NCBI RefSeq assembly: GCF_001598235.1
Contig: NZ_BCYO01000001.1
Location: 62,001 to 126,000 of the forward strand
Length of the DNA stretch: 64,000 nt
DNA from: Polaromonas jejuensis NBRC 106434
GTDB taxonomy: Bacteria > Pseudomonadota > Gammaproteobacteria > Burkholderiales > Burkholderiaceae_C
Direction of reading: 5' to 3'
This document shows, piece by piece, positions 3,979-22,149 of the stretch; position 1 is the first letter of the stretch; every line of letters starts with the position of its first letter. Under the pieces are notes generated by a model, which was given only the letters and a program-made list of their open reading frames with translations, made no database searches and had not been told where the DNA came from. The position numbers and the translations under genes are program-made.

Positions 3979-4137
3979 CGGCGAACGCGAACCGACGTCT
4001 ACCGTCCAGCGCGCGAGAGTCGGTTCCCTGTTCTGCTGACCCATGGCCCATATGCCAAGGGGCCGGCATTTCAGGATGGTTGCCGTATGCCGGAGGCAGT
4101 GATGAAGGAAGCGGCTGTCTCGCTATGCATGCACTGA
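3979..4137 (+). pseudogene. CocE/NonD-type hydrolase fragment
   Basis: A roughly 50-residue stretch, TDVYRPARESRFPVLLTHG followed by PYAKGPAFQDG, strongly resembles the N-terminal part of CocE/NonD (X-Pro dipeptidyl-peptidase-like) alpha/beta hydrolases, where ADVYRP and VLLTxGPYxKG are typical. It stops after only about 15 further residues and has no recognisable N-terminus, so it is a remnant of a gene normally above 500 residues. Recognition is from memory of family motifs. Confidence 0.5.
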
Positions 4138-4147
4138 GGGGATTGTC

Positions 4148-4597
4148 ATGGCCACTATCACGCAGCGAACCACACACTTTACGTTGCGCTTTCTCGCGCA
4201 ACCCTGCACCGTCAACTTTGGTGGCAAGGTGCATGGCGGTACCGTCATGAGCTGGATAGACCAGGCAGGATACGCATGCTCAAGCGGATGGTCGCAGCGC
4301 TACTGCGTCACCGCCTATGTCGGCGGAATCCGTTTCGTCAGACCCATCAAGATTGGTGATGTTGTCGAAGTGGAAGCGCGGCTTGCGTACACAGGGGACA
4401 CGTCCATGAATATTGCGGTCGAGGTGCGTTCGGGCGACCTTAAAGGTGGTGGACTGGAGAAGACAACGGAGTGCGCCATCGTCATGGTGCTTGTCGATGC
4501 GGACGGAAAACCGGTCGCAGTGGAGCCATTTCATCCGACCGATGATGCGGGGAAGACGCTGGCCGCTGAAGTGAAGAAACGCCTCGTTGGGCGTTGA
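4148..4597 (+). CDS. acyl-CoA thioesterase, hotdog fold
   Basis: A 149-residue single hotdog domain. The segment GGKVHGGTVMSWIDQAGYAC is the hot-dog helix of the ACOT/YciA-type thioesterases (residues about 24-45), with the usual following strand RFVRPIKIGDVVEVEARL. It should hydrolyse acyl-CoA esters in the cytoplasm. It stands alone: the hydrolase remnant lies upstream and a convergent LysR gene downstream. Physiological substrate unknown. Confidence 0.85.
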   Translation: MATITQRTTHFTLRFLAQPCTVNFGGKVHGGTVMSWIDQAGYACSSGWSQRYCVTAYVGGIRFVRPIKIGDVVEVEARLAYTGDTSMNIAVEVRSGDLKGGGLEKTTECAIVMVLVDADGKPVAVEPFHPTDDAGKTLAAEVKKRLVGR

Positions 4598-4650
4598 GAA
4601 CCAGGTCCAGTTGCAAAAGGCATCCAATGTCTGCCCTCACGGCTCGCTCT

Positions 4651-5562
4651 TCAGCCTTCGCTGGCTCGTGTGACGTGTTGCTCGAGAAACTCCAGCAGGG
4701 CCTGAACCTTTCGCGAATGCCGTCTATTGGGCAGATAGGCGGCGTACACGGAGACGGTCTCCTGCTGTGGGTTGACCTGCCAGTCCTCAAACAGCCGCTG
4801 CAGCTTGCCAGCGCGAACGTCGTTGCCGACCAGCCACTGGGGAAGCAGCGCGATGCCGACGCCGCCAAGAACCGCCTCGCGAAGCATGTCGGAGCTGTTG
4901 ACGAGGAAGCGCCCACCAATTTCGACCTGTTCGGTGTCACCGCCACGCAGGAAAGCCCAGCGCTGTCTGCCTGGCTGATACGAGAACCGCAAGCACTCAT
5001 GCGCCGCCAGGTCCTGGGGTTTCAGGGGCAAACCCGCGCGCTCAAGGTACTCCGGGCTCGCGACGACGAACCGGTGGTGCTCACCCAGCGTGCGGACGAC
5101 CAGATTGGGTTCCTGGGACCGAACGCCAATGCGGACGGCTACGTCGATGCGCTCGCTTGCGAGGTCGAGGTAGGCATCCGAAAGCACCAGGTCCAGGGAA
5201 ACGCGAGGATAGGTCTTGAGGAAGCTCGCTATATGAGGTCCCAGACACAGGCGCCCGTAAGTGACGGGCATCGACACCCGAAGCGGCCCAACCGGCTCTC
5301 CGCTGGTGTCTGCAACGCTGTCGTCTGCCTCCTCAAGTTCGGCGATGACCCGAAGGACTTGCTCAAGGTACGCGGTTCCGGTATCGGTCAGCGTGACTTG
5401 CCGGGTTGTTCGTGTGAGGAGGGCCGTGCCCAACGACTGCTCCAAGGCATCTATGAGCCGCGTCACCGAAGACGTGGCCACGCCCATGCGACGCGCCGCC
5501 TCAGAAAAGCCACGAGATTCCGCTACTTCGACGAATGCCTGCAAGGCTTGCAATTTATCCAT
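4651..5562 (-). CDS. LysR-family transcriptional regulator
   Basis: A 303-residue LTTR of the short-spacer, DsbA/quinone-type subgroup (first residues MDKLQALQAFVEVAES). The winged HTH lies at residues 1-60 (GFSEAARRMGVATSSVTRLI) and the effector domain from about 90 to 295. The ATG at 5562 is chosen over an upstream in-frame ATG because the HTH begins there and the extra 34 residues have no family counterpart. It is divergent from the DsbA-like/LLM/monooxygenase operon and is its likely regulator; the divergent gap holds a T-N11-A palindrome. Confidence 0.9.
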   Translation of the reverse strand: MDKLQALQAFVEVAESRGFSEAARRMGVATSSVTRLIDALEQSLGTALLTRTTRQVTLTDTGTAYLEQVLRVIAELEEADDSVADTSGEPVGPLRVSMPVTYGRLCLGPHIASFLKTYPRVSLDLVLSDAYLDLASERIDVAVRIGVRSQEPNLVVRTLGEHHRFVVASPEYLERAGLPLKPQDLAAHECLRFSYQPGRQRWAFLRGGDTEQVEIGGRFLVNSSDMLREAVLGGVGIALLPQWLVGNDVRAGKLQRLFEDWQVNPQQETVSVYAAYLPNRRHSRKVQALLEFLEQHVTRASEG

Positions 5563-5572
5563 ATAACATTTG

Positions 5573-5587
5573 TTGCGCAAGGCGCAA
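5573..5587. promoter_or_regulatory. candidate LysR operator (T-N11-A)
   Basis: The sequence TTGCGCAAGGCGCAA is a perfect 6-bp inverted repeat with a 3-bp centre. It fits the LTTR T-N11-A box and lies 11 bp upstream of the LysR start, in the 104-bp gap shared with the divergent operon. This is the expected place for autoregulation plus control of the operon. Confidence 0.6.
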
Positions 5588-5666
5588 AGCTGGGTTGCAT
5601 TTCTAACATATTCTCTATTCTGCCTGCAACGCTTATCTTCTATGCATCCCAACAAGGAGTTCAAAG

Positions 5667-6326
5667 ATGAAATCAGTCGAAGTAGAAGTTGTTTCCGACT
5701 TTATTTGCCCGTGGTGCTGGATTGGCCACCGGAATTTGAAGGACGGCATCGAGCGCGCCGGCCTCGATGCGGCGGCCGTTCAGTTGCGGTTCGTTCCGTA
5801 CGAGCTCAATCCCCAAATGCCCAAGGAAGGCTTGAACCGCAAGGAATACCGCAGCCGCAAGTTCGGCAGCTGGGCGCGCTCGCAAGCCATGGATGCCGAC
5901 GTCGCGATGGCTGGACAACGCGTAGGCGCACAGTTCAACTATGACCGGGTGGCGGTCACACCGAACACGCGTCAGGCGCACCGGCTGATGTACTGGGCGC
6001 AGTTGCAAGGCGACGGCGCCAAGAGTGCGGCGCTCTACGAGGCCATCTTCTCGGCGTACTTTTCCGAAGGCAAGAACATCGGCATTGTCGATGTCCTGGT
6101 GGACCTGGCAGTGGCCAATGGCTTCAATGGGGATGTCGTGCGCGCCTTCCTGGAAACCCACGAAGGGGAGCGCGAGGTTGTTGCGTCAGAGCTTCGCGCC
6201 TCGGTCGCCGGGGTGCAGTCGGTTCCCACGATTCGCATCGCAGGCGTTCAGGTCAGCGGCGCGCAGCCCTCCAACGTGATGGCACAAGCGTTGCGCGCAG
6301 CGGCGGTCGCAGAACCGGTGGCCTGA
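5667..6326 (+). CDS. DsbA-family (FrnE/2-hydroxychromene isomerase-like) oxidoreductase
   Basis: A 219-residue thioredoxin-fold protein without a signal peptide, hence cytoplasmic. The redox motif is Cys14-Pro-Trp-Cys17 (CPWCWIG) and the cis-Pro loop is SVPT near residue 190. This is the FrnE-like clade, often found beside monooxygenases. It starts the operon with the LLM oxidoreductase and flavin monooxygenase (2-bp gap, then a 4-bp overlap). A GST-like or disulfide role in the pathway is possible; the substrate is unknown. Confidence 0.85.
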   Translation: MKSVEVEVVSDFICPWCWIGHRNLKDGIERAGLDAAAVQLRFVPYELNPQMPKEGLNRKEYRSRKFGSWARSQAMDADVAMAGQRVGAQFNYDRVAVTPNTRQAHRLMYWAQLQGDGAKSAALYEAIFSAYFSEGKNIGIVDVLVDLAVANGFNGDVVRAFLETHEGEREVVASELRASVAGVQSVPTIRIAGVQVSGAQPSNVMAQALRAAAVAEPVA

Positions 6327-6328
6327 GC

Positions 6329-7324
6329 ATGAACCAAACCGGCGTCATGGGCCCAGTCAACCGGGCTTATTCAATCGCGCTGGGCGCGGGCCGGATGACC
6401 ATGGGTCTCATGACACCGGCTGCACGTCCGGCCGGGTCGATGGCCGACATGGCACTGGAGCGGAAGATTGCTGAACGAGCGGACCACCACGGCTTTGCTG
6501 CCTTGTGGGCACGCGACGTGCCGTTGATGGTCCCCCAGGGCGCTGACAACGAGTCCAGTCCCTTGGACGACCCGTTCCTGTGGCTGGCGACACTGGCTGC
6601 CGTCACGCGCAACATCGCCCTCGGCACCGCCGCCGCTGTATTGCCGCTGCGCGACCCACTGCACTTGGCCAAATCGGCCTTGACCTTGGACCGCCTGAGC
6701 GAGGGGCGTTTCATCCTGGGCCTCGGTTCGGGTGACCGGCCCGCGGAGTTTGCCGCGTTCGGGGAAACGTTCAGTGACCGCGGCGAAAGGTTTCGGAGTC
6801 AGTGGAATGTGCTGCGCTCGGCGCTGGAGCCGCGTTCGTCCGAACGCGCACCCCTGCTACAGGCCACCGGTGGGTACGACCTCATGCTTGCCCCCATCAC
6901 TCGCGTCCCGATGGTTGTGGTCGGCTCGGCACGCCAGTCCCTTCAGTGGATTGCAACCAATGCCGACGCCTGGGCAACCTATCACCGTGACGAGGTGCGC
7001 CAGCAGGGTCGAATTGGCCTGTGGCAGTCCGCGCTGCGCGACCGGGTGGGCGGCGAGCCGAAGCCGTTCGTGCAGTCCGTGCATCTGGACTTGCTGGAAT
7101 CACCTGATGCGCCGGCAGAGCCGCTGGAGCTGGGCCTGCGCGCAGGTCGTCGCGCGCTGGTCTCGTATTTGGCCCGAATGGAGCGTGCGGGCGTCGGTCA
7201 CGTCATGTTGCACCTTGCACAAGGCCCCCGGCCGGCCATGGAAGTGGTCGAAGAAATTGGATTGGACGTTCTGCCAGGCCTGGCCGCCGAATTGACGTCT
7301 CTGAAAGAGAAAGATTACTCATGA
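6329..7324 (+). CDS. LLM-class (luciferase-like) flavin-dependent oxidoreductase
   Basis: A 331-residue TIM-barrel protein of the bacterial luciferase-like family. Typical stretches are ERADHHGFAALWARDVP (residues about 49-66), NIALGTAAAVLPLRDP and LGLGSGDRPAEF. Such enzymes use FMNH2 or F420; an F420 system is unlikely in this lineage, so FMN is assumed. It probably acts on the same compound as its two operon partners. Its TGA overlaps the next ATG. Confidence 0.85.
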   Translation: MNQTGVMGPVNRAYSIALGAGRMTMGLMTPAARPAGSMADMALERKIAERADHHGFAALWARDVPLMVPQGADNESSPLDDPFLWLATLAAVTRNIALGTAAAVLPLRDPLHLAKSALTLDRLSEGRFILGLGSGDRPAEFAAFGETFSDRGERFRSQWNVLRSALEPRSSERAPLLQATGGYDLMLAPITRVPMVVVGSARQSLQWIATNADAWATYHRDEVRQQGRIGLWQSALRDRVGGEPKPFVQSVHLDLLESPDAPAEPLELGLRAGRRALVSYLARMERAGVGHVMLHLAQGPRPAMEVVEEIGLDVLPGLAAELTSLKEKDYS

Positions 7325-8487
7325 ATACCACCAAAACCCCCCGTGCCATCATCATTGGGGGGTCTCTGGGCGGCCTTTTCGCTGCCACCTCGCTGCGTGC
7401 CATCGGCTGGGACGTGGACGTCTTCGAACGCTCACCACACGAACTCGACAGCCGCGGCGGCGGGGTGGTGCTGCAGCCCGACGTCCTGGCGGCTTTCCGC
7501 TTTGCGGGCATTGTCCACTCGAGTGCGCTCGGGGTGCAGTCGGGTGACCGCATTTACCTCAACCGGGATGACCGTGTCATACAGCGGCAGTTCATGCCGC
7601 AGACGCAGACCTCCTGGAACATGCTTTATGGCGCGATGAAGCGAGCGCTGCCAGCCGAGATGGTGCATGCCGGCGAGGAATTTACCCGCTTCGAGCAGGA
7701 AGGAGACCGCATTCATGCGCATTTCGCAAGCGGTCGAGTTGAAACCGGTGACCTGCTGATTGGTGCCGACGGGGCACGGTCATCGGTTCGCAAGCAGGTG
7801 ATGCCCGGCCACGATCCGAGCTACGCCGGTTATGTTGCCTGGCGTGGGCTGGTGCCGGAATCGAGGCTGCCTGCCGATGCGGCGGCAGTACTGGGAGGTA
7901 CGTTCGCCTTTCAACAAGGGCTTGGCCATCTCATGCTCGAATACATGGTCCCGGGCGAGGACGAGTCGACCACAAAAGGCGAGCGTCGCTGGAACTGGGT
8001 CTGGTACCGCAAGGTTGGCGCAGGTGCCAACCTCTCGGATTTGCTGACTGACCGCGACGGTGTCCGCCATGCGTTCTCTCTGCCGCCCGGCGCACCCAAG
8101 GACAGCGATATAGCCGAAATGCACCAGGCATCAAGAGACTTCTTGGCCCCGACATTTCAGCGCTTGGTAGAGGCGACCGATGAACCCTTCGTTCAGGCCA
8201 TTCTGGACTTGCAGGTGCCGCAGATGGTTTACGGCCGGGTCATTTTGCTTGGGGACTCCGCGTTCGTGCCGCGGCCGCATACCGCCGGAAGTACGGCCAA
8301 AGCCGCCGCCAACGCCGTCGCTTTGGCCCAAGCGCTGCGTGCTGACGGCGCAGATGTCGACAAGAGTCTTGCCCATTGGCAGGCAGGGCAGCTTCGCCAA
8401 GGAATAGGAATGACCACATGGGGCATGTCCATCGGTGACCGGATCATGAACATTCATCCCATCGGTGCCCCGTCTGAAGAGGAGTGA
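7321..8487 (+). CDS. FAD-dependent aromatic monooxygenase (2,6-dihydroxypyridine hydroxylase-like)
   Basis: A 388-residue class A flavoprotein hydroxylase. It has the dinucleotide-binding GGSLGGLFAATSLRAIG (residues 13-29), the LIGADGARSSVRK DG-type motif, and GRVILLGDSAFVPRPHTAGS for ribityl binding. The RPHTAGSTAKAAANA block and the YVAWRGLVPE segment resemble 2,6-dihydroxypyridine 3-monooxygenase and 6-hydroxynicotinate monooxygenase. With the molybdenum hydroxylase 4 kb upstream this could point to N-heterocycle breakdown, but the two are not one operon. Start chosen by the ATGA overlap. Confidence 0.85.
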   Translation: MNTTKTPRAIIIGGSLGGLFAATSLRAIGWDVDVFERSPHELDSRGGGVVLQPDVLAAFRFAGIVHSSALGVQSGDRIYLNRDDRVIQRQFMPQTQTSWNMLYGAMKRALPAEMVHAGEEFTRFEQEGDRIHAHFASGRVETGDLLIGADGARSSVRKQVMPGHDPSYAGYVAWRGLVPESRLPADAAAVLGGTFAFQQGLGHLMLEYMVPGEDESTTKGERRWNWVWYRKVGAGANLSDLLTDRDGVRHAFSLPPGAPKDSDIAEMHQASRDFLAPTFQRLVEATDEPFVQAILDLQVPQMVYGRVILLGDSAFVPRPHTAGSTAKAAANAVALAQALRADGADVDKSLAHWQAGQLRQGIGMTTWGMSIGDRIMNIHPIGAPSEEE

Positions 8488-8521
8488 CATAAAACATGCG
8501 CGAGGACAAAACGCAGTGGCG

Positions 8522-8896
8522 CTAATGCTTGGGCAAAACGCGGAGGGTGAGGTCACTGGGGATGACCCGATTCATTGATGCAGATTGAATAGCAGCGCGA
8601 CCCAGTAGCGCGTGTACGTCGAACGCAGGTCCGACTCTTAAGGCCGGAACGCGCCAATTCATGAACTGTTCATAGGATTTGGTTGGCCTCTCCGGTTTAT
8701 TGAAGAAATGGAGAGTTACGCCCTCGGTAAGAGACTTGGTGGCGCTAAAGCGCCGTTGCATCTCTTCAGTGACCTCGACCCATTTTTTTAAGGGTTCGTT
8801 CGGCCGCAGCTCTGCTGCCGCTTGGACGCAGGACAAAATAACCGGCAGTGAGTGAGCTATCCCGGTGAGATCATCGGGCGCACTTATGACGCGCAA
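8522..8896 (-). CDS. hypothetical protein in AT-richer island
   Basis: A frame of up to 124 codons whose only plausible start here is TTG at 8896; the frame is open a little further upstream but without ATG or GTG. Composition is protein-like (for instance PLKKWVEVTEEMQRRF), but no family was recognised. An overlapping second minus frame (8884-9072) could join it through a frameshift. It sits in the anomalous stretch between two conserved operons, so it may be a leftover of an inserted element or no gene at all. Confidence 0.3.
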   Translation of the reverse strand: MRVISAPDDLTGIAHSLPVILSCVQAAAELRPNEPLKKWVEVTEEMQRRFSATKSLTEGVTLHFFNKPERPTKSYEQFMNWRVPALRVGPAFDVHALLGRAAIQSASMNRVIPSDLTLRVLPKH

Positions 8897-9345
8897 AAGC
8901 GCAGCAGCGGACGGAGTGAATAGCGGTGTTGTAGTTTCAAAAGACTTTGCACGACACGTGCATGCAGGCGCACGTGCTCCAGTTCAAAGACCAAAAGGAA
9001 GGGTGTTTTTTCGCCCGGTGTTGGGCGCTGAACTGGACGCTTTAGTCCATACTTTTTATTAAGGACGTCCAATATTTTTCAAATTCGAATTGTGATTTCT
9101 TTGTGACCCCAATGGTCGTGAATGAGTCGGATCATTGGAGGGGCAAGAAATCTGGTGTGACATCGAATCGATTCGCGGGAGATCTAAATAGGCGTCATGT
9201 CACGCCACCAGGCACTGGAGCAAAGTGCTGCAATACTGATAAAATCACGCTATAGAGTGTGAAAAAAGCATTTGGCACCGACTAAAACCTAACGAGTTAC
9301 ATATTAGTGTTTGAACTCTCATAACCCAAAGTCTAGGCTGGTAGC

Positions 9346-9375
9346 AAACGCCCACTTCATGTGGGCGTTTTGCTT
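9346..9375 (+). terminator. intrinsic terminator hairpin
   Basis: A perfect 10-bp stem AAACGCCCAC / GTGGGCGTTT with a TTCAT loop, followed by TGCTTTT. No obvious plus-strand gene precedes it within 850 bp, so it may belong to a lost gene, or serve the reverse strand (AAA tracts also flank the left arm). Confidence 0.6.
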
Positions 9376-9377
9376 TT

Positions 9378-9421
9378 GTGCCTACTCTGTGCCCATATCG
9401 TGCCCAGCCTGTGCCCACAAA
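9378..9421 (+). repeat. four tandem 11-bp units
   Basis: Four units begin GTGCC(C/T)A at 9378, 9389, 9400 and 9411, exactly 11 bp apart; the last three share GTGCCCA. Spacing of one helical turn would put the conserved heptamers on one face of the DNA, as in iterons or operator arrays. Confidence 0.7.
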
Positions 9422-9660
9422 ATTTCTCAAAATTCAGTAGTGACCATTGGGCTATTTCTGTAGGTAGCCGTGTCACTGACCGACTGATGAGCGTCTCTGG
9501 TCGTAGGGACGGCCCGGTTCAAGTTCCGACAGACCTTATTTCAAAGGCGTCTTTTTGCGGTGTCGGCGGTGGTGGTCTCGATTGGGTGCATGTTGTCGAT
9601 GACTTTGGCTACTTGTGTAGAGTCCGACTGACTTTGGTCCCACGTTGCAACGTCAAAGGA

Positions 9661-10380
9661 ATGTATTTGCGCAGGATTTTCAGCGGTTCAAGATTCGTTC
9701 GCCTGCTCAGTGATTGGGCCTCTGTGGAGGTTGATGCGTCGAGGCAGGATTTTGCGGAACGACTGGGCGAGTGGCTGGGCGTTTTCGATGCCATCACGCT
9801 CCATGCGGCGCACCAGTCGATCAATACGGTTGACGAAAAGAAACCATCGGATGCGCCGCTGGCCAGAACCTTCGCCCTGGAAGAAGAATTTCAGCGGGTG
9901 CGAACGGCCCTGGTGAAGGCCATCACGGCAGGCGGTGCAGCCCCTGCCAGCGGCAAACTTGTCAGGAACCCCGTACCCCAGCCAGAAGCCGCCACGGAAA
10001 CGGACGCTGGCTATGCACCGTATCACCAGCGTTATCTCGATCAGCAACGCCAGATGGCATTGAGGATTGATGCCTTGCGTGCCTATGTCCGGCAAGCCCT
10101 CACGAAGCTCTCTCCCCAACTCGGGCAGCTGGCAAGCTTCGATACCGTGATGGAGCAGATGCTCGGTGGTCGGGAGCAAAAACTGCTGTCAAGCGTGCCC
10201 GTGCTGCTTGAACGGCGTTTCGAGCACTTGCGCAAAACCCACCAGCTCGGGCTGGACGCTGCGCAGCAACAGGACGTCTTCGGCAAGGAGATGCAGGAAG
10301 TCTTGCTGGCGGAACTGGAGGTCCGGTTGCAGCCGGTCGTAGGATTGATTGAAGCATTCAGCAAAGAGGTTAAGAAGTAG
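9661..10380 (+). CDS. DUF3348 family protein
   Basis: A 239-residue protein of unknown function restricted largely to Burkholderiales. The diagnostic N-terminal block is FSGSRFVRLLSDW followed by SRQDFAERLGEWLGVFDAI. The ATG at 9661 is preferred because family members start just before this block; the frame runs open 300 bp further upstream through the anomalous stretch. An AAAGGA directly abuts the ATG, so translation initiation may be weak or the start slightly different. The C-terminal half is helical and charged, cytoplasmic. First gene of a four-gene operon. Confidence 0.82.
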   Translation: MYLRRIFSGSRFVRLLSDWASVEVDASRQDFAERLGEWLGVFDAITLHAAHQSINTVDEKKPSDAPLARTFALEEEFQRVRTALVKAITAGGAAPASGKLVRNPVPQPEAATETDAGYAPYHQRYLDQQRQMALRIDALRAYVRQALTKLSPQLGQLASFDTVMEQMLGGREQKLLSSVPVLLERRFEHLRKTHQLGLDAAQQQDVFGKEMQEVLLAELEVRLQPVVGLIEAFSKEVKK

Positions 10381-10382
10381 CC

Positions 10383-12554
10383 ATGAACAGGATTTTTTTT
10401 GCAGTCGCCTTCGCTATCGGTCTGATCACCGTGGCCTGGGTGGGCTCGGGGTTTGTCGGCTCGAGCTGGATGGCCCTGGTCATGACGGCGGTGATTGCCG
10501 GCGTGTATTTGCTGGGCGCGTTTGAACTCAGGCAGTTTCGAGTTGCCACGTCCTCGCTGGCGGCGGCGCTGGCCGACATTGCGCCGCCGCTGCCGGACAT
10601 GAGCGTCTGGCTAGGTGGCGTTCACCCCTCTCTGCAAAACGCCGTGCGTTTGCGAATCGAGGGTGAACGGGTCGCCTTGCCGGGTCCCGCGCTGACACCG
10701 TACCTGGTGGGGCTGCTGGTGATGCTGGGGATGCTCGGCACCTTCCTGGGCATGGTCGTGACCTTCAAGGGGGCCGTGTTTGCTCTGGAGGGTTCGACCG
10801 ATCTTCACGCTATCCGGTCGGCGCTCGCTGCACCTATCAAGGGCCTGGGGCTTGCATTTGGCACCTCGGTGGCCGGGGTGGCCGCGTCGGCCATGCTGGG
10901 CCTGCTGTCGGCCATCAGCCGCCGCGAGAGGGTGGACGTCGCGCGGCAGCTGGACTCCCGTATTGCGACCGTCTTTCGGCCGTTTTCGCTCGCCCATCAA
11001 CGCCAGGAAACCTTCAAAGCGCTGCAGGTGCAGGCGAATGCCTTGCCCGACGTGGTCGACAAGTTGCAGGCCATGATGGAGGGCATGGAACGCCGGAGCC
11101 AGCAGTTGAACGAGCAACTGCTGGGCAGCCAGGCGCAGTTCCACCGCGAGGTGAGCGTTGCCTACACCGGTCTGGCCGACACCGTCGGGCAGTCCCTGAA
11201 AGACAGCCTGACGGCCAGCGCAAGGGTGGCGGGCGAGAGCATCAAGCCCGTGGTCGAGGCGGCGATGACGGAAATTGCGCAGGAATCGAAGCGCCTGCAC
11301 GAGCGCGTGAGCGACGCAGCGCAGACGCAGTTGACGGGCCTCTCGGCCCAGTTCAGCGCCACCGCCCGCACCGTGTCCGAGACCTGGACGACGGCTCTCC
11401 AGAACCATGCGCGGACCAGCGAAAGCCAGGTCAATGGCCTGGACCGGGCACTGGCTGCCTTCACGGACACCTTCGAGCAGCGCGCCAGTGCCTTGCTGGC
11501 CACGGTCAACGAGGCCGTGTCCAGGTCGCAATCGGACCAGGCCTCGGCGGATCGGCAGAGGCTGGAGGCCTGGACGCAGGCGCTGGAGTCCATGGCGGCC
11601 ACGCTGCACGGCGAATGGCAGCGTGTCGGGGCGCAGACGCTCGCCCAGCAGCAGGCCGTCTGCCAGACACTGGAGAAGACCGCCGGCGAGATCACCCAGC
11701 GCAGCAGCGATCAGGCAAGCCGGACACTCGCCGACATGACGCGGCTGTTGGCCCAGTCCGAAGCGCTCATTCGTTCGCGCGTGGACTCGGAGGCCGACTG
11801 GGTGAAGCAGCACGGCGACCGCATGGAACAGCTGGCCAGTTTGTGGCGCACGGAACTCGGTGCGCTCAGGCAAGAAGAGGCAACGCGCGGCAACGCCGCC
11901 GTCGAGCGGCTGGGCGAACTGCAGGCTGCGCTGGCCGGTCATCTGGCCACGCTGGGCGCCGCGCTGGAAACACCCATGACCCGGCTCCTGCAAACGGCCT
12001 CTGAAGTGCCCCAGGCCGCTGCCGAAGTGATTGCGCAGTTGCGGCAGGAAATGACCCGGCTCACCGAGCGGGACAACCTCGCGCTTGAAGAGCGCACCGG
12101 CCTGGTGGAACAAATCAGGGCGCTGCTTCAGACCATCAACCAGGCCTCGGGCGAACAACGTGCGGCCATTGAGTCGCTGGCCGCCTCTGCGGCGGCGGTG
12201 ATGGACCAGGCCAGCCAGCAGTTTGCCGACACGCTGGGCGCGCAGGCGGGCAAGTCCGCGGAAGTGGCGGCGCAGGTGGTCGGCAGCGCGGTCGAGCTGG
12301 CTAGCCTGGGCGAATCCTTCAAGCATGGCGTCCAGCTTTTCAACGCGACCAATGAGAAGCTGATTGAAAGCCTGCAGCGCATGGAGGGCACCATGAACCA
12401 GTCCATGGCGCGAAGTGACGAACAACTCGCCTACTACGTGGCGCAGGCGCGCGAGGTCATCGACCTCAGCATCACGTCGCAGCAGGGCATTGTCGAAGAC
12501 CTGCGCCAGCTCCACAGCAAGCAAGCCGCGCAGTCCGTGGGAGTCGCCGGATGA
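10383..12554 (+). CDS. DUF802 protein: MotA/TolQ/ExbB-like channel with long helical tail
   Basis: A 723-residue protein. Hydrophobic segments at about 3-22, 28-46, 105-126 and 152-177 form a MotA/TolQ-type four-helix unit, with LGMLGTFLGMVVTF in the third and GLAFGTSVAGVAASAMLG in the fourth, the usual ion-channel helices. Residues about 190-690 are a long Ala/Gln/Glu-rich coiled-coil-like cytoplasmic tail without transmembrane segments. This layout matches ZorA-type stators more than flagellar MotA, which lacks such a tail. It begins 2 bp after the DUF3348 stop. The function of the family is not established. Confidence 0.85.
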   Translation: MNRIFFAVAFAIGLITVAWVGSGFVGSSWMALVMTAVIAGVYLLGAFELRQFRVATSSLAAALADIAPPLPDMSVWLGGVHPSLQNAVRLRIEGERVALPGPALTPYLVGLLVMLGMLGTFLGMVVTFKGAVFALEGSTDLHAIRSALAAPIKGLGLAFGTSVAGVAASAMLGLLSAISRRERVDVARQLDSRIATVFRPFSLAHQRQETFKALQVQANALPDVVDKLQAMMEGMERRSQQLNEQLLGSQAQFHREVSVAYTGLADTVGQSLKDSLTASARVAGESIKPVVEAAMTEIAQESKRLHERVSDAAQTQLTGLSAQFSATARTVSETWTTALQNHARTSESQVNGLDRALAAFTDTFEQRASALLATVNEAVSRSQSDQASADRQRLEAWTQALESMAATLHGEWQRVGAQTLAQQQAVCQTLEKTAGEITQRSSDQASRTLADMTRLLAQSEALIRSRVDSEADWVKQHGDRMEQLASLWRTELGALRQEEATRGNAAVERLGELQAALAGHLATLGAALETPMTRLLQTASEVPQAAAEVIAQLRQEMTRLTERDNLALEERTGLVEQIRALLQTINQASGEQRAAIESLAASAAAVMDQASQQFADTLGAQAGKSAEVAAQVVGSAVELASLGESFKHGVQLFNATNEKLIESLQRMEGTMNQSMARSDEQLAYYVAQAREVIDLSITSQQGIVEDLRQLHSKQAAQSVGVAG

Positions 12555-13204
12555 TCGACCTTGACGAAAGGGGCGACGGCATGGAGCAGACCGCGCCGGT
12601 CTGGGCCGTTTTCGGGGACCTGATGTCGGGCTTGCTGGGCGCCTTCGTGCTGATTCTGGTCGGGGTGCTGGTGGTCCAGATGGACCTGATGGCCAACCTG
12701 GAGGCGGAGGTGCAAAAGCGCCGGGTGGAGGAGCAGCGCCGTATCGCCCTGGAAAAGGCTCTGGCCATTCCGCTGGCAACGGGCCGGGTCACGCTGAACA
12801 ACGGACGCATTGGCATCAGTGGCAGCGTGTTGTTTCCCCTGAACTCGGATCAGTTGCGTCCCGAAGGCCGGCTGCTGTTGAAGAGTCTCGTGCCCCCGTT
12901 GCAGGTGTACCTGGGTGAGCGCGATGAACTGTTGATGGTGAGCGGTTTTACCGACGACAAGCCCATCCAGGAAGGCAACCAGCGCTTTGCGGACAACCTG
13001 CAGCTGTCGGCCCAGCGCGCCCTGACGGTGACCCGTGCCCTGATCGAGGAAGGCATGCCGTCGTCCCGGGCCTTTGCCGCGGCGTTTGGCGCAGAGCAGC
13101 CGGTAGCCTCCAATACGGATGAAAAGGGGCGCGCGCTGAACCGGCGCGTGGAAATGGCGCCGGTGCCCAAGTCCGCCAATGTGAAACCTTCCACCCATGA
13201 GTGA
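12551..13204 (+). CDS. OmpA/MotB-like peptidoglycan-binding protein
   Basis: A 217-residue partner of the DUF802 protein; its ATG overlaps that gene's stop. One transmembrane helix near residues 18-42 begins with VFGDLMSGLLGAFVLILVG. Asp23 in this helix sits where MotB and ZorB have their ion-carrying Asp. A coiled region follows, then an OmpA-like domain from about 80 to 205 (SGSVLFPLNSDQL, GFTDDKP, LNRRVEM) that should grip peptidoglycan. An alternative start at Met11 would shorten only the cytoplasmic tip. Together with DUF802 it forms a plausible 5:2 stator. Confidence 0.88.
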   Translation: MIDLDERGDGMEQTAPVWAVFGDLMSGLLGAFVLILVGVLVVQMDLMANLEAEVQKRRVEEQRRIALEKALAIPLATGRVTLNNGRIGISGSVLFPLNSDQLRPEGRLLLKSLVPPLQVYLGERDELLMVSGFTDDKPIQEGNQRFADNLQLSAQRALTVTRALIEEGMPSSRAFAAAFGAEQPVASNTDEKGRALNRRVEMAPVPKSANVKPSTHE

Positions 13205-13964
13205 GTCGGGGCTCGCCGAAATGCCGCATTCGCAGCGGGATGGAGAAAAGTCGCTTCTGTCGTGGCATGCGTCCTTGCGAAACGAAGGAGCCCAGCGCCT
13301 CGATCCCGCGCGCTTTCATTACCTGGAGGTGCTGTCGCAGCGCATGGACACAGCGCCAGGCGAGGTGCGACGCATCCTGGAAGGCAAGTTCAAAGTTGCA
13401 CTGGCGGACTATGGCGAACGCTTCAGGCAGGCGCAGAAGGCGGCCAGCGACGAGTTGGCGAGCCTGTCAGCCAGGCATCCGGACCTGGCTAGTGAACTGC
13501 ACCGGCTTTTCGCGGCAGGCGATTACGGGGGCATGCGCCGGCTGGGCGCGCAATCGGCGTTCAACAGACCCTGCGCGCCGCTGGCCCAGCTGAACCAGTA
13601 CATCCAGAACGTGAAGCAGGACGGCATTGATCACCGCCTGGGGAGTGGTCTTGGGTGCAGTCTGGTCAGCGACATGGAGGCCAGTTCTGAAATGGCGAGC
13701 GTGCGTCGCTTCAGGGAGGCGTGGTCCAGGATTGCTGCCGAGGACCAGGTGGACCAGGCCGTCGAGCGAGGGCCTGTCAACGCCGGCCCGCTGAATTCGC
13801 ACATGCTTGTGCTTCGTTCCCTTGCGCTGATGCGCAAGCTGTCACCCGACTACCTGCGGCGCTTTCTGTCGCATGTGGATACCTTGCTGTGGCTCGATCA
13901 GGCGAACCAGAAATACACGCCAGTGACGGCGAAACCGGCGCGTCGAAGCCGGCAGAAGAAATGA
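13197..13964 (+). CDS. DUF2894 family protein
   Basis: A 255-residue soluble, helical, basic-tailed protein matching the DUF2894 family that follows OmpA genes in Burkholderiales. Visible blocks are FHYLEVLSQRMDTAPGEVRR (residues about 41-60) and LNSHMLVLRSLALMRKLSPD near the C-terminus; the last 15 residues are Lys/Arg-rich. The ATG overlaps the OmpA stop by 8 bp. No enzymatic motif seen. Likely a cytoplasmic accessory of the stator pair. Confidence 0.8.
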   Translation: MSESGLAEMPHSQRDGEKSLLSWHASLRNEGAQRLDPARFHYLEVLSQRMDTAPGEVRRILEGKFKVALADYGERFRQAQKAASDELASLSARHPDLASELHRLFAAGDYGGMRRLGAQSAFNRPCAPLAQLNQYIQNVKQDGIDHRLGSGLGCSLVSDMEASSEMASVRRFREAWSRIAAEDQVDQAVERGPVNAGPLNSHMLVLRSLALMRKLSPDYLRRFLSHVDTLLWLDQANQKYTPVTAKPARRSRQKK

Positions 13965-14631
13965 AGGCGAGTTGCGTGTGATTTGAGTCCTGCTATCTGC
14001 TATCTGCGATGTGCTCATGCAGATCAAGCGCCACCTCGATCTCTGCTGGATCGAAAGCGGTGATCAGCAGATAAGCGCCGGCATCCTGCGTATCAAGGCG
14101 CTTAAGCAGTGGTGGATTATTGAGAATCTTGCTCCCCGCCTGGTGCTCACCACCCATGAGCTGTGGGCCCTGAAGACCGGTCAACCCCCAGCAAGCCGGG
14201 CAGTGCATCGCAAGCCTTCACTCCGCTGGTCACACTCATCCGCTACGCAGGCGATGAACCCAACGATCTGGAACTGGTGTGCAACGCCATGGACCGGATC
14301 AGGAAGCTGCCTGCGGGCGCTGCGATCGCGCGCCGCTGGGCCGCGTTTGGGAAGTCATCACATCATGAACATCTACCCGCTGCAATTTGAAGTTCTGCAA
14401 ATCAATGCCCAGTTGGAAAAGTCCACATTGACGGCTGGCGTCTGAGAGTTCCATGTCGCCGAACTTGATGAACCACTGGCAAGATGCGGCATGGCCAAGC
14501 TAAAACAGCCCAAGCGCATGATTCATCCATTGGAAATTCTCGTCTTAGCCAGATTGGGGGCGCTGATGGTCTGCTCTTTTTTACGCCCGTTATTTCTGCT
14601 GGAGCAGATTGGAATTTAGAAGTGAATTTCT
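13965..14631. other. 667 bp without a supported gene
   Basis: Several short plus-strand frames overlap (14011-14445, 14163-14390). One reads LVTLIRYAGDEPNDLELV and looks protein-like, but neither frame continues or matches a family I know. This looks like a decayed gene. No clear terminator for the DUF operon was found. Confidence 0.3.
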
Positions 14632-17046: not shown

Positions 17047-17454
17047 TCAGTTTGGCGCTGAATCGGGGAGTACGGCTGTGACTTCAATCTCGATCTTCGC
17101 GCGCTCTTCCACCAGGGCGGCCACCTCTATGCAGGTCATGGCCGGGAAGTTTTTTCCCATGACTTCGCGGTAGACACCGCCCAACTCCTTGAGCCTGGCG
17201 ACATATTCAGCCCGGTCCACGATGTACCAGGTCATGCGCACCATGTGCTCCGGCCCGGCGCCGCCGGCCTTGAGTACGGCCGCGATATTTTGCAGCGTCT
17301 GCCGGGTCTGCGCGATGAAATCATCGCTTTCAAACTGCTGCCGGGCATTCCAGCCGATTTGTCCGCCCACGAACAGCATGCTTCCGCGTGCGAGGATGCC
17401 GTTGGCGTAGCCCTTGGGTTCTGCCCAGTCGGGAGGTTGAATTTTTTTGATCAT
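17047..17454 (-). CDS. RidA/YjgF-family deaminase-like protein
   Basis: A 135-residue chorismate-mutase-like trimer protein of the Rid family, which hydrolyses enamine/imine intermediates to ketones and ammonia. Characteristic stretches are VGGQIGWNARQQF and the C-terminal EIEVTAVLP; the IEVAALVE segment replaces the RidA Arg105 region (no clear Arg in the classic R-V-E context), suggesting another Rid subgroup. It ends the operon and overlaps the thioesterase gene by 4 bp. Removal of the amino group from a non-aromatic 2-amino-CoA product is an attractive role (inference). Confidence 0.85.
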   Translation of the reverse strand: MIKKIQPPDWAEPKGYANGILARGSMLFVGGQIGWNARQQFESDDFIAQTRQTLQNIAAVLKAGGAGPEHMVRMTWYIVDRAEYVARLKELGGVYREVMGKNFPAMTCIEVAALVEERAKIEIEVTAVLPDSAPN

Positions 17455-17891
17455 GATGCTTGCGGGATTCGTTGGAGGTAGGGTAAAAGCGCGCTGCGCA
17501 GTTCATCGGGAATGCACACGGGTTTTCCGTGGGGGATCTCCGAATAAACCACCACGCCATGGGCTCTCAGCTTGAGGGTGGCCGTGCTGCCCGGCGTCTT
17601 GGGTGGGCCATGAATTTCATACTGCATCCCTATGCTTGCGTTGCCCACTTTGGTCAATTCAAGCGTCATCGTGAGTTCGTCGCCATGGCGGCACATGCCC
17701 ATGAATTCGGTTTTCAGGTCCACGATGGGAACGCCCGTCCCGCTTGCGATCAAGGCATGTTCGGGAAAGCCGATGTGAGTCAGAAAATCTTCCTGCACCT
17801 CATGCAGCAGGTAAAAAAATTGCGGATAGAAAACAATGCCGGCTGGGTCGCAGTGATGAAAGCGCACCTGTTTGTAGGTCGTGAATTTCAT
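17451..17891 (-). CDS. acyl-CoA thioesterase of the 4-hydroxybenzoyl-CoA thioesterase family
   Basis: A 146-residue hotdog protein. The N-terminal VRFHHCDPAGIVFYPQFFYLLHEV is split by the catalytic Asp in CDPAGIVFYP (Asp15), the signature of 4-hydroxybenzoyl-CoA thioesterases. It may recycle CoA from dead-end aryl-CoA esters in the pathway encoded upstream. Its start overlaps the ligase stop (4 bp). Confidence 0.87.
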   Translation of the reverse strand: MKFTTYKQVRFHHCDPAGIVFYPQFFYLLHEVQEDFLTHIGFPEHALIASGTGVPIVDLKTEFMGMCRHGDELTMTLELTKVGNASIGMQYEIHGPPKTPGSTATLKLRAHGVVVYSEIPHGKPVCIPDELRSALLPYLQRIPQAS

Positions 17892-19522
17892 GATTGCCGC
17901 AGTTTGAAGCGTTGCAGCTTGCCGGTTTCGGTGCGCGGCAGTTTGGGCACAAATTCAATTTTTCGCGGGTATTTGAAGGGCGCCAATGTGGCCTTCACAT
18001 GGTCTTGCAGTGTTTTCGCCAGGCTGTCGCTGGCCAGCTGATCGGGTTTGAGCACCACGAAGGCCTTGACGATCATGCCGCGCTCGTCGTCGGGCACCCC
18101 CACCACGCCGCATTCGGCCACCGCCGGGTGTTTGAGCAGCGCATCTTCCACCTCCGGGCCGGCGACGTTGTAGCCCGCCGTGATGATCATGTCGTCGGCG
18201 CGCGCCTGGTAGAAGAAATAGCCATCGGCGTCCTGCATGAAGGCATCGCCCGGGTAGTTCCAGCCGTCCTTGACGTAGTTGCGCTGCCGCGCATCGTCAA
18301 GGTAGCGGCACCCGGTAGGGCCCATCACCGCCAGCTTGCCAATGGTGCCGCGCGGCACTTCCACGCCATCGTCATCCACCACCCTGGCGGAGTAGCCCGG
18401 TACGACCCTGCCAATCGCGCCGCGGCGAACATCGCCTCCCGCCGATGAAATGAAAATATGGAACATCTCGGTGGCGCCAATGCCATCAATGATTTCAATG
18501 CCGGTGGCGTCTTTCCAGAGCTGCCGCGTCGCATCGGGCAGTCCTTCGCCGGCGCTCACGCAGAGCCGCAGGCTGGGCACGCCATGCTGCCTGGAAAAGG
18601 CGGCCATCTGGCGATAAAACGTGGGTGCGGTGTAGCAGATCGTGGCGCCCACCTGCCTGATGAGCTTGACCATCGCCTCGGGGGTGTAGGGGATGGATGG
18701 GTAGTAGACAGACGCCCCGGCCCACATGGGAAAAATCAGCATGCCGCCCAGTCCGAAGGTGAAGGCCAGTGGCGGTGAGCCCATCACGATGTCTTGCGGC
18801 CCGGCCTGGAGCACATGGCGTGGCCAGGTTTCGCAGGCGGCAAGTATGTCGCGGTGCGTGTGCACCGCCGCTTTGGGTTTGCCGGTGGTGCCCGAGGTGA
18901 AGGCCATCATGGCGATGTCGTCGGCCGCAACCGGGCAGGGCGTGAACTGGCTGTCCTTTTGCGCCGAGAGCACCGCCAGGGAACCCGGCTCGTTCATGAG
19001 GTTGAACGGGACGATGGTCTGCAGCGTGGCGCTTTGGTCTTTGGCGATTTTCAACTCTTCCAGCAGGCTGGCATCGCACAGCGCCAGCACCGGCTGCGCT
19101 TTCTCAATGATCTCGCCCAACTCCTTGGCGCGCAGCAGCGGCATGGTGGCCACCGCCACCAGACCGGCCTGGACCACGCCCAGCCAGGCCAGCGCCATGC
19201 CTATGGAGTTGCCACCCCGCAGCAAGACCCGGTTGCCCGGCACCAGCTTGAAGTCTTCGGTCAGCACCTGGGCAATCCGGTTGACGCGGGCCAGCGCGTC
19301 GGCATAACTCAGTGTGATCCTGTCCGAGCGCAGAAAGGGCCTGTCGCTGTGCCCCTCCCGAGCGGCCTTGGCGAACAAGACCTCCACCAGATTGGCCCGG
19401 GCCGGTATGCGCAGCTCGGGCAGCGCATAGACCAGGGTCGGGCATTGGTCCTGCGGCGGCAGGCGGTCGTGCACGAATCGGTCGGTTTGCGCCGAAGGCG
19501 CGGGAGAGCTTGAAGCGTTCAT
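17888..19522 (-). CDS. 2-aminobenzoate/benzoate-CoA ligase family protein
   Basis: A 544-residue AMP-forming aryl-CoA ligase. The P-loop is TSGTTGKPK at 209-217 and the C-terminal catalytic Lys lies in TETGKLQRF near 537. Length and the MMAFTSGTTGKPKAAVHTHR block fit benzoate/2-aminobenzoate-CoA ligases. The ATG at 19522 (MNASSSPAPS) overlaps the dehydrogenase stop; the long upstream extension is in another gene. It should form the CoA thioester that feeds the bifunctional monooxygenase/reductase of this operon. Confidence 0.88.
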   Translation of the reverse strand: MNASSSPAPSAQTDRFVHDRLPPQDQCPTLVYALPELRIPARANLVEVLFAKAAREGHSDRPFLRSDRITLSYADALARVNRIAQVLTEDFKLVPGNRVLLRGGNSIGMALAWLGVVQAGLVAVATMPLLRAKELGEIIEKAQPVLALCDASLLEELKIAKDQSATLQTIVPFNLMNEPGSLAVLSAQKDSQFTPCPVAADDIAMMAFTSGTTGKPKAAVHTHRDILAACETWPRHVLQAGPQDIVMGSPPLAFTFGLGGMLIFPMWAGASVYYPSIPYTPEAMVKLIRQVGATICYTAPTFYRQMAAFSRQHGVPSLRLCVSAGEGLPDATRQLWKDATGIEIIDGIGATEMFHIFISSAGGDVRRGAIGRVVPGYSARVVDDDGVEVPRGTIGKLAVMGPTGCRYLDDARQRNYVKDGWNYPGDAFMQDADGYFFYQARADDMIITAGYNVAGPEVEDALLKHPAVAECGVVGVPDDERGMIVKAFVVLKPDQLASDSLAKTLQDHVKATLAPFKYPRKIEFVPKLPRTETGKLQRFKLRQS

Positions 19523-20742
19523 GATTGCAATACCGCCTTGCCAATGATGAGTTGCTGAACTTCGGTCGCGCCTTCGTAAATGCGCAGCGAACGGATGTCG
19601 CGGTACAGGCTTTCCACCTTGGTGCCGACCTTGACCCCCAGGCCGCCATGCATCTGCAGCGCCATGTCGATCACGCGCTGGGCGTTTTCGGTGGCCGTCA
19701 TCTTGGCCATCGCGGCGGCCACGGTGCGGTCTCTGCGGCCTTCGGCCTCTGCCGTGGTGCCTGCGGGGCTGCCGACGCGCTCGCCTTGTTCGTTGTGATG
19801 GTCGCGCATCCAGGCGGCGCGGTAGGTCAGCAGCGCCGCCGCATCCACCAGGGCTGCCATGTCCCCGAGTTTGGCCTGCGTCAGTTGAAAGTCCGCCAGC
19901 GTCTGGCCGAACATCTTGCGTTCCTTCGCGAAACTCACGGCCTCTGCGAGGGCGCGGCGTGCCATGCCCAGTGCGGCACCGGCCACCGAGGCGCGGAAAA
20001 TGTCCAGCGTCTGCATGGCCAGCTTGAAGCCGCCGTGCAGCGTGCCCAGCTGGGCGGCGCCTGCCAGTTGGCAGTGGACAAATTTCAATGTGGCCAGCGG
20101 GTGCGGCGCCATCACGGCGATGTGTTCGCTGCTGTCCAGGCCCTTGGTGGAGGCGTCCACGATGAAGGCCGTGATGCCGCGCGTGCCGGCGTCGGGGTCG
20201 GTTTTGGCAAAGGTGACGTAAAAATCGGCAATGCCGCCATTGCTGATCCAGGTCTTGCACCCGTTGAGGGCCCATCCGGCCTCCAGAGCGGTGGCGCTTG
20301 TGCTCATGGCGCCCGCGTCGGAGCCCGCGTCCGGCTCGCTCAGCGCGAAGGCGGCGATTTTTTCACCACGGGCTACTGCCGGCAGGTAAGCCGCTTGCTG
20401 CGCAGGTGTGCCTGCCAGGGTGATGGCGCCGCTGCCCAGTCCCTGCATGGCAAAGGCGAAATCGGCCAGCGGGGAGTGAAAGGCCAGGGTCTCGCGCAGA
20501 ATCACCAGCGCCCGGGAGTCCAGCTTGTCGAGTGCGCCGCCCAGCGTCCCCTCCTTGCCGGCTGGCACGCAGTAGCGCAGCCAGCCCTGGTCGCCCAGCA
20601 AGCTGACCCATTCCCTGCAGGCCCGGCGGTCATCGCTTTCGTCGACATGCTGCTGCGGCATCCAGTCGGCCAGCCGGTGGCCGAGGTCGCGGTGCACGTC
20701 GTCAAAAAATGGCAGCGTCAGGTGGGTAGTGCTTGATCTCAT
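19519..20742 (-). CDS. acyl-CoA dehydrogenase
   Basis: A 407-residue flavoprotein. FALSEPDAGSDAGAM and WISNGG mark the FAD/substrate region, and the catalytic-base segment is YEGATEVQQ with Glu390. It probably desaturates or aromatises an alicyclic CoA intermediate. The ATG at 20742 (MRSSTTHLTL) is taken; an in-frame ATG 27 codons upstream overlaps the gap before the crotonase gene. Middle gene of a compact operon. Confidence 0.87.
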   Translation of the reverse strand: MRSSTTHLTLPFFDDVHRDLGHRLADWMPQQHVDESDDRRACREWVSLLGDQGWLRYCVPAGKEGTLGGALDKLDSRALVILRETLAFHSPLADFAFAMQGLGSGAITLAGTPAQQAAYLPAVARGEKIAAFALSEPDAGSDAGAMSTSATALEAGWALNGCKTWISNGGIADFYVTFAKTDPDAGTRGITAFIVDASTKGLDSSEHIAVMAPHPLATLKFVHCQLAGAAQLGTLHGGFKLAMQTLDIFRASVAGAALGMARRALAEAVSFAKERKMFGQTLADFQLTQAKLGDMAALVDAAALLTYRAAWMRDHHNEQGERVGSPAGTTAEAEGRRDRTVAAAMAKMTATENAQRVIDMALQMHGGLGVKVGTKVESLYRDIRSLRIYEGATEVQQLIIGKAVLQS

Positions 20743-20776
20743 GCGTGGAATATCCTTGCTGATTGGTTTGCTTGAC

Positions 20777-22128: not shown

Positions 22129-22149
22129 GGGATTCCTTGTGTTGATTTT

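What the first reader, a model, noticed from the sequence alone, without database searches (positions are those of the whole stretch)
9661..13964. DUF3348-DUF802-OmpA-DUF2894: a ZorAB/MotAB-like stator operon of unknown use
Seen: four tightly coupled genes; a four-helix channel protein with a very long helical tail, and a single-pass protein with Asp23 in the helix start (FGDLMSG) and an OmpA domain. Known: MotAB, ExbBD/TolQR and Zorya ZorAB are 5:2 ion-driven rotors with this build, and ZorA has a long cytoplasmic tail. Inference: this is an ion-powered envelope machine, perhaps for defence or cell-envelope sensing, with DUF3348 and DUF2894 as cytoplasmic effectors in place of ZorC/D/E. No nuclease or helicase motif was seen in the two flanking proteins, which argues against a copy of classical Zorya.
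Basis: partly seen in the sequence, partly recalled or inferred. Interest (0 to 1): 0.8.

Follow-up and report, generated by a model that had tools for sequence, protein, structure and literature searches.

The report
Zorya type III anti-phage motor operon
These four genes are a copy of an already described bacterial anti-virus system, Zorya type III, built around an ion-driven membrane motor; the copy is ordinary, but comparing its relatives suggests where its two unexplained partner proteins attach.

Summary
In detail: four overlapping or touching genes, DUF3348 - long-tailed MotA-like ZorA - OmpA-domain ZorB - DUF2894, lie at 9661-13964. The operon is not of unknown use. It matches PADLOC's Zorya type III models very strongly (ZorA3 2.7e-273, ZorB3 1e-108, DUF3348 6.9e-75, DUF2894 4.2e-61). 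That system was named in 2021, and a Stenotrophomonas copy reduced phage plating in E. coli (PMC8565338). Comparison with relatives adds details not seen in the papers found: Asp23 is invariant (97/97 rows); the operon is a 4.4 kb cassette whose surroundings change; the ZorA tail varies from 274 to 842 residues, yet its tip is about as conserved as the channel helices and was seen only with DUF3348/DUF2894; both partners are predicted all-helical with no recognised enzyme family; DUF2894 is basic with a positive C-terminal tail. Likeliest mechanism: a wall-anchored ion motor whose tail tip signals to two helical adaptors. How those stop phage is open. Interest 0.3.

The parts
9623..13994 (+). 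Exchangeable cassette holding the operon (about 4.37 kb)
9661..10380 (+). DUF3348 protein, 239 aa (ZorF in the papers, ZorG in PADLOC-DB)
   Evidence: PF11828 1.4e-73; PDLC00658 6.9e-75; AF2 all-helical, pLDDT 84.6, pTM 0.81
10383..12554 (+). ZorA, type III: MotA/TolQ/ExbB-like channel subunit with 516-aa tail, 723 aa
   Evidence: PDLC00648 2.7e-273; PF05650; one relevant solved chain, 8vvn_C
10740..10742 (+). ZorA Thr120, putative ion-path ring threonine
   Evidence: 93/93 rows; in register with a GTF motif of 8vvn_C; role by analogy with ExbB/TolQ, recalled
10863..10868 (+). ZorA Thr161-Ser162, putative ion-path ring
   Evidence: 92/93 and 93/93 rows; in register with a TSV motif of 8vvn_C
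12408..12482 (+). ZorA tail tip, residues 676-700, ARSDEQLAYYVAQAREVIDLSITSQ: putative docking site
   Evidence: mean top-residue frequency 0.90; seen only in loci with DUF3348 and/or DUF2894
12551..13204 (+). ZorB, type III: single membrane helix plus OmpA-like peptidoglycan-binding domain, 217 aa
   Evidence: PDLC00651 1e-108; PF00691; NCBIfam equivalog NF006547 360.7 bits, cut-off 194, named 'hypothetical protein'
12617..12619 (+). ZorB Asp23, putative ion-carrying aspartate
   Evidence: 97/97 rows
13197..13964 (+). DUF2894 protein, 255 aa, basic, pI 9.6 (ZorG in the papers, ZorF in PADLOC-DB)
   Evidence: PF11445 4.5e-64; PDLC00652 4.2e-61; AF2 all-helical, pLDDT 81.6, pTM 0.50; pI
13896..13961 (+). 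Positive C-terminal tail of DUF2894 (last 22 aa)
   Evidence: net charge at least +5 in 70 of 79 relatives against 18 of 535 flanking protein families

Best explanation
This is a Zorya type III anti-phage operon. Shown by sequence: the type III gene set, conserved ion-path residues, a wall-binding-type domain, a long ZorA tail with a conserved tip, and two partner proteins predicted all-helical. Shown by others: types I and II ZorAB are 5:2 ion motors whose Asp, wall-binding domain and tail are needed for defence, and a type III operon from Stenotrophomonas reduces phage plating in E. coli. Inferred: ZorA5B2 sits idle in the inner membrane; when phage entry disturbs the wall, ZorB binds peptidoglycan, ions flow past Asp23, and ZorA with its tail turns; the conserved tail tip passes this to DUF3348 and DUF2894, which act as helical adaptors rather than enzymes. 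The confidence given covers the identity and this chain from motor to tip to adaptors. The last step, for which I commit only at about 0.3, is that basic DUF2894 binds DNA (incoming phage DNA) or the inner membrane surface and so blocks phage without a nuclease encoded in the operon.
For: Family: PADLOC type III models for all four proteins; same gene order in 75 of 80 kept relatives, the other 5 cut. Motor: Asp23 97/97, OmpA-type Asp135 and Arg156 97/97, ZorA Thr120 93/93, Thr161 92/93, Ser162 93/93; profile match to the solved ZorA chain 8vvn_C, 4.6e-6. Tip: tail length 274-842 aa in 92 of 97 rows, but tip frequency 0.90, against 0.95 and 0.91 in the two channel-helix bins and 0.33-0.66 in the 25-residue bins of residues 301-675. 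In 6 of 6 class-level loci with DUF3348 and DUF2894 the tip reads RSDEQL.YYV.QARE..D; in the 2 without them it is absent. Over the loci held, 101 with the tip carry DUF3348 and/or DUF2894; 8 ZorA cores without the tip carry neither, 7 of them long enough to show a tail end. Partners: no strand in either model; only the DUF families in Pfam at E 0.1. Basic DUF2894: median pI 10.3 (n=76), tail charge at least +5 in 70/79, flanking families 18/535. Patchy spread: 3 of 61 relatives and 17 of 300 genomes of the order over the DUF3348 cut-off (one of the 17, G178, has no ZorA/ZorB beside it). Published activity: PMC8565338; motor mechanism of types I/II: PMC11890865.
Against: No sign of a defence island: of 98 first-neighbour proteins scanned (of 142), the 25 listed PADLOC families name one protein each for RmrA, mad3, GajB-like helicase, capP and RTasHel at 1e-10, so at most 5 proteins on a list that is capped. 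Several genera form one clade each in the operon tree (Curvibacter, Acidovorax, Zoogloea), and a type III Zorya is listed among the conserved defence systems of R. solanacearum (PMC13064858, one figure-legend passage), which a housekeeping machine would also show. In an infected Burkholderia only the first one or two Zorya III genes changed, and the authors did not list Zorya III among the systems they call transcriptionally active (PMC12584637, one passage). No binding partner was tested; tip-partner coupling is correlation, most loci were found by ZorB or DUF3348 similarity, and the type I-like control loci are short. The wall-binding motif reads GFT where type I has His186-Thr187, a His needed for wall binding there (motif compared by eye). 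DUF2894 pTM is only 0.50.
Confidence: 0.75

Rival explanations
1. ZorAB of type III is a gated ion leak: DUF3348 and DUF2894 hold the channel shut or open it, and activation depolarises and kills or stalls the infected cell (abortive infection). The partners are regulators, not carriers of the blow.
For: Payne et al. propose that ZorF and ZorG regulate ZorAB in place of ZorC/D/E, and report protection of liquid cultures at MOI below 0.1 (PMC8565338). No enzyme family is found in the operon's partners. PMC11890865 finds impaired fitness of infected cells in types I and II.
Against: The conserved stretch is at the far end of a tail of hundreds of residues, not near the channel, an odd place for a gate. 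Types I and II use DNA-acting partners.
Confidence: 0.3
2. The activated tail recruits a host nuclease or repair complex through DUF3348/DUF2894, so the end result is DNA cleavage as in types I and II. (This shares the motor-tip-adaptor chain of the best explanation and differs in the last step.)
For: [quoted passage not shown] Helical, enzyme-free partners fit a recruiting role.
Against: The tested Stenotrophomonas operon worked in E. coli, a distant host, so a recruited factor would have to be widely conserved. Nothing here points to one.
Confidence: 0.25
3. The operon's main job is cell-envelope upkeep or sensing, and phage protection is a side effect of expression from a plasmid.
For: Few defence genes among the neighbours scanned; genus-level clades; listed as conserved in R. 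solanacearum; gyrB-like or GroEL-like neighbours in some clades (names by eye).
Against: Patchy in its own genus (2 of 36 other same-genus genomes); the same cassette sits in unrelated surroundings within one genus; 546 families among 777 flanking proteins; reported phage protection.
Confidence: 0.12

Closest known systems
Zorya type III (Payne et al. 2021, PADLOC)
   Same: All four genes, their order and profiles
   Different: Nothing of substance found. ZorA at 723 aa lies within the range of relatives; activity of this copy untested.
Zorya type I (ZorABCD)
   Same: ZorA/ZorB build, channel motifs, long tail
   Different: No ZorC or ZorD in the operon; the type III tail tip is absent from 5 type I-like ZorA frames with a tail end (a sixth, L174, is cut)
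Zorya type II (ZorABE)
   Same: ZorA/ZorB build
   Different: No ZorE; only weak ZorA2/ZorB2 scores, 6.1e-7 and 1.7e-7
MotAB flagellar stator, TolQR, ExbBD
   Same: Predicted four-helix A subunit, one-helix B subunit with Asp; OmpA-type wall domain as in MotB
   Different: Below the curated cut-offs of the flagellar MotB/MotD/MotS models among the 25 of 40 matches shown; long tail and DUF partners
Two-gene ZorA3/ZorB3-like pair in one unnamed order of the same class (L160, L163)
   Same: ZorA3 3.6e-62 and ZorB3 2.7e-77 for L160
   Different: No DUF3348, no DUF2894, a different tail end

Membership tests
Zorya type III | ZorA and ZorB homologues of the type III kind | tested here: met
   PDLC00648 2.7e-273; PDLC00651 1e-108
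Zorya type III | Flanking DUF3348 and DUF2894 genes in one operon | tested here: met
   PF11828, PF11445; order kept in 75 of 80 relatives, 5 cut
Zorya type III | Ion-path aspartate in the ZorB helix | tested here: met
   Asp23 97/97
Zorya type III | Peptidoglycan-binding-type domain on ZorB | tested here: met
   PF00691 8.3e-15; Asp135, Arg156 97/97. Binding itself not tested; His186 of type I appears as Phe133 by eye
Zorya type III | Long cytoplasmic ZorA tail | tested here: met
   516 residues after residue 207; 274-842 between fixed points in 92 of 97 rows
Zorya type III | 5:2 ZorA:ZorB assembly | not testable with these tools
   Only single chains can be predicted here; shown for types I/II in PMC11890865
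Zorya type III | Protection against phage | not testable with these tools
   Shown for another member in PMC8565338
Zorya type I | ZorC and ZorD (helicase) genes with ZorAB | tested here: not met
   The two partner proteins match only the type III DUF3348/DUF2894 models in PADLOC at E up to 1
Zorya type II | ZorE HNH nickase with ZorAB | tested here: not met
   As above; no HNH family at E 0.1
Flagellar MotAB stator | Curated MotB family score reached | tested here: not met
   MotB/MotD/MotS models shown: 41-75 bits against cut-offs of 250-301 (25 of 40 matches shown)
Known fold class for DUF3348 or DUF2894 | Clear structural match in the PDB | tested here: inconclusive

The most novel reading that the evidence does not exclude
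Zorya type III is a nuclease-free branch of the Zorya family: a rotating ZorA tail of freely variable length drives a fixed tip module to which DUF3348 and the basic DUF2894 dock, and these bind DNA or the inner membrane directly to stop phage DNA entering. Defence would be mechanical or by blocking, not by cutting. The two-gene ZorAB pair with another tail tip (L160, L163) would then be a further branch of the same swap-the-tip design.
Probability: 0.3. Interest if true: 0.65.

Novelty: already known. Interest (0 to 1): 0.3.

Why it matters
The identity is settled in print, so the find itself is ordinary. What would matter is the mechanism: types I and II are explained by recruited DNA-cutting partners, and no enzyme was recognised in type III. 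The tip-partner rule found here gives a short, testable target (residues 676-700 of ZorA) and a clear prediction of which parts meet, and the positive DUF2894 tail gives a second one. Both could be checked in a laboratory E. coli strain. The cassette behaviour (same operon, changing surroundings, few defence genes among the neighbours scanned) also suggests that searches guided by defence-gene neighbourhoods could miss this system.

Tried and rejected
Nuclease or helicase in the partners: none in Pfam at E 0.1, only the type III models in PADLOC at E 1. Solved-structure sequence search with both partner profiles: best E 0.63 for DUF3348 and 0.0076 for DUF2894, the latter a 47-residue stretch of PscE. 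Fold searches: Foldseek gave 0 PDB matches at E 0.001 for either model; VIA-align gave only helical-bundle resemblances; no fold named. Paralogy of DUF3348 and DUF2894: hhalign probability 0.7%. Phage or viral carriage: no DUF3348 match in 50,697 phage records; the 10 ZorB matches there cover 35-57% of the query, in its OmpA part; no relative among 28 viral-contig candidates for the ZorB alignment. Recombination footprints: no tRNA in the window; a script looking for shared words of 11 to 14 bases, direct or inverted, between the two cassette flanks printed none. Foreign base composition: cassette 63.8% G+C, window 63.4%. Empty site: the FUSC-side relative diverges straight after the FUSC gene, and the upstream FAD monooxygenase has no close copy in the genus sample (41% at best), so no clean empty site was found. 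Wide defence-island claim: not supported. DUF3348 matches in G045 (E 4e-5, under the cut-off) and G178 (E 5e-6, just over it) have no ZorA/ZorB beside them and were not pursued. Controls with type I ZorA: none reached the cut-off of NF033914 in 274 genomes, so the 8 best loci were taken as type I-like; 2 of the 8 did not match the type III core at 1e-3 and drop out of the tip count, one more (L174) is cut to 224 aa, and 3 were checked as ZorA1 by PADLOC. These loci are 2-4.7 kb, so partner genes further out would be missed.

Rows dropped before counts: 5 of 97 ZorA rows under 500 aa in the tail-length count; 3 repeat loci remain in the 97-row conservation counts; 16 repeat loci were left out, and 36 other held stretches there match nothing; of 142 first neighbours of the 80 named loci, 28 of already-taken families and 16 over 700 aa were left out of the 98 scanned; alignments for folding used 74 of 75 DUF3348 and 76 of 80 DUF2894 relatives; the tree used 76 of 81 possible rows.

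Full report
What is there. Four same-strand genes overlap or nearly touch at 9661-13964: DUF3348, a 723-aa channel-type protein with a long tail, a 217-aa one-helix OmpA-domain protein, and DUF2894.

What it is. PADLOC-DB models for Zorya type III match all four proteins: ZorA3 2.7e-273, ZorB3 1e-108, DUF3348 6.9e-75, DUF2894 4.2e-61. Zorya type III was defined in 2021 as a ZorAB-type pair flanked by DUF3348 and DUF2894, with 6,401 loci counted; a Stenotrophomonas nitritireducens copy in E. coli lowered plating of at least one tested phage (PMC8565338; passages, section 15). The 2025 Zorya structure paper cites it as the third subtype (PMC11890865; passages). Searches for the DUF names and for type III Zorya found no mechanistic study of type III (listings, with passages read where stated); most subscription journals are not held, and Hu et al. 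2025 could not be read. Names are swapped between sources: both papers call DUF3348 ZorF and DUF2894 ZorG, while PADLOC-DB 2.0.0 labels DUF3348 ZorG and DUF2894 ZorF.

Motor features. OmpA-type Asp135 and Arg156 are also 97/97, ZorA Thr120 and Ser162 93/93, Thr161 92/93. A profile of the ZorA core finds one relevant solved chain, 8vvn_C, at 4.6e-6, with GTF and TSV motifs in register; two further matches at E above 0.7 look like chance. 8vvn_C is 696 residues long, the length that PMC11890865 gives for its type I Shewanella ZorA, and the entry code occurs twice in that paper (counted; those passages were not displayed). That these are ion-path residues is by analogy with ExbB and TolQ (recalled) and with the serine/threonine ring described in PMC11890865.

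The tail and its tip. Between two fixed points the tail measures 274 to 842 residues in 92 of 97 rows, yet residues 676-700 (ARSDEQLAYYVAQAREVIDLSITSQ) have a mean top-residue frequency of 0.90, beside 0.95 and 0.91 in the two channel-helix bins and 0.33-0.66 in the 25-residue bins of residues 301-675. Tail hydrophobicity repeats every 3.65 residues over 93 tails, nearer to an 11-residue than a 7-residue coiled-coil repeat, though a plain helix (3.6) is close too. In a class-wide ZorB search (10 of 369 genomes at 1e-30, own genome included), eight new loci were fetched: six have DUF3348, DUF2894 and the tip (five read RSDEQLAYYV, one RSDEQLKYYV); two have neither DUF gene and no tip. Over the loci held, after leaving out 16 known repeats, 101 with the tip carry DUF3348 and/or DUF2894 as far as the contig reaches, and 8 ZorA cores without the tip carry neither. 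Of these 8 one is cut short of a tail, and six are type I-like loci of 2-4.7 kb. This fits the tip being the docking site of the type III partners. It is correlation, and the sampling leans towards type III.

The partners. AlphaFold2 gives models without a strand: DUF3348 pLDDT 84.6, pTM 0.81; DUF2894 pLDDT 81.6, pTM 0.50, so its domain arrangement is unsure. Fold comparison was inconclusive. Pfam at E 0.1 names only the two DUF families. DUF2894 is strongly basic: median pI 10.3 in 76 relatives, and the last 22 residues carry a net charge of at least +5 in 70 of 79 relatives, against 18 of 535 flanking protein families. DNA or membrane binding is my inference.

Spread. DUF3348 is over cut-off in 3 of 61 relatives (own genome and 2 of 36 other same-genus genomes) and in 17 of 300 genomes of the order, own genome included; one of the 17 (G178) has no ZorA or ZorB beside it. 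Against the nearest relative, a Polaromonas MAG, homology runs 9623-13994 at 88.6% and stops at both ends, while a same-genus genome shares only the downstream FUSC gene. Up to five genes each side of 96 loci give 777 proteins in 546 families by my own simple gene caller; the recurring ones look by eye like transport, metabolic and housekeeping genes. Twenty-seven of 72,556 plasmid records carry DUF3348, in Caballeronia, Paraburkholderia, Burkholderia, Cupriavidus, Aquabacterium, Azoarcus and Variovorax; 20 of the 27 are over one megabase; two 18.7 kb stretches viewed show the same four genes. No phage record carries DUF3348. The ZorA-ZorB tree (quick method, 76 rows) keeps several genera together (Curvibacter, Acidovorax, Zoogloea) but splits Rhodoferax and Polaromonas; more than one change is no proof of transfer, as MAG bins can hold stray contigs. 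So the cassette looks patchy and movable, with vertical stretches. PMC13064858 lists type III Zorya in R. solanacearum as an example of conserved defence systems (one figure-legend passage). PMC12584637 reports expression changes of only the first one or two Zorya III genes in an infected Burkholderia, and does not list Zorya III among the systems it calls transcriptionally active (one passage).

How it most likely works. Steps shown for types I and II by others: 5:2 ion motor, wall binding by ZorB, tail and Asp needed for defence. Steps inferred for type III: the same motor senses wall disturbance and turns; the tail is a spacer whose length hardly matters; the tip carries the output to DUF3348 and DUF2894. 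The last step, that these block phage DNA or alter the membrane without a nuclease of their own, is a guess at about 0.3. The rivals are a gated ion leak, recruitment of a host nuclease, and an envelope-upkeep role.

Verdict. New here, as far as the searches named show, are the tip-partner rule, the strand-free partner models without a recognised enzyme family, and the basic DUF2894 tail. Interest 0.3 as found.

Noticed in passing
Possibly a further Zorya branch with a partner elsewhere.
   Followed up: partly
PADLOC-DB PDLC00652-00658 against PMC8565338 and PMC11890865: ZorF and ZorG labels for DUF3348 and DUF2894 are swapped between the model library and the papers.
   Followed up: no
window 17047-24536: Minus-strand cluster with RidA-like, thioesterase, acyl-CoA dehydrogenase and a protein fusing FAD_binding_3 with Oxidored_FMN, which looks like a 2-aminobenzoyl-CoA type aromatic degradation cluster (recalled).
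   Followed up: no
window 1195-8487: Molybdopterin-binding enzyme, LysR regulator, DsbA-like protein, luciferase-like monooxygenase and FAD monooxygenase: another likely aromatic or heterocycle catabolic cluster beside the cassette.
   Followed up: no
window 8490-9620 and 13995-14630: Stretches beside the cassette; the two ORFs tested there have no Pfam family at 0.001, and the upstream stretch has low G+C (0.46 at about 9000-9500); possibly scars of earlier insertions.
   Followed up: partly
L086:7841-9998: ZorA core and tail tip lie in two overlapping frames, a frameshift or assembly error in a Rhodoferax MAG.
   Followed up: no
L098, L103, L112, L123: In one Rhodoferax-type clade the operon sits directly after a gyrB-like gene, with dnaN-like and dnaA-like genes further upstream in three of the four (names by eye from the sequences), an unusual fixed place near the replication origin.
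   Followed up: no
NCBIfam NF006547 (PRK09040.1): NCBI's equivalog model for this ZorB family (360.7 bits, cut-off 194) still carries the name 'hypothetical protein', so annotated genomes would not show the Zorya link.
   Followed up: no
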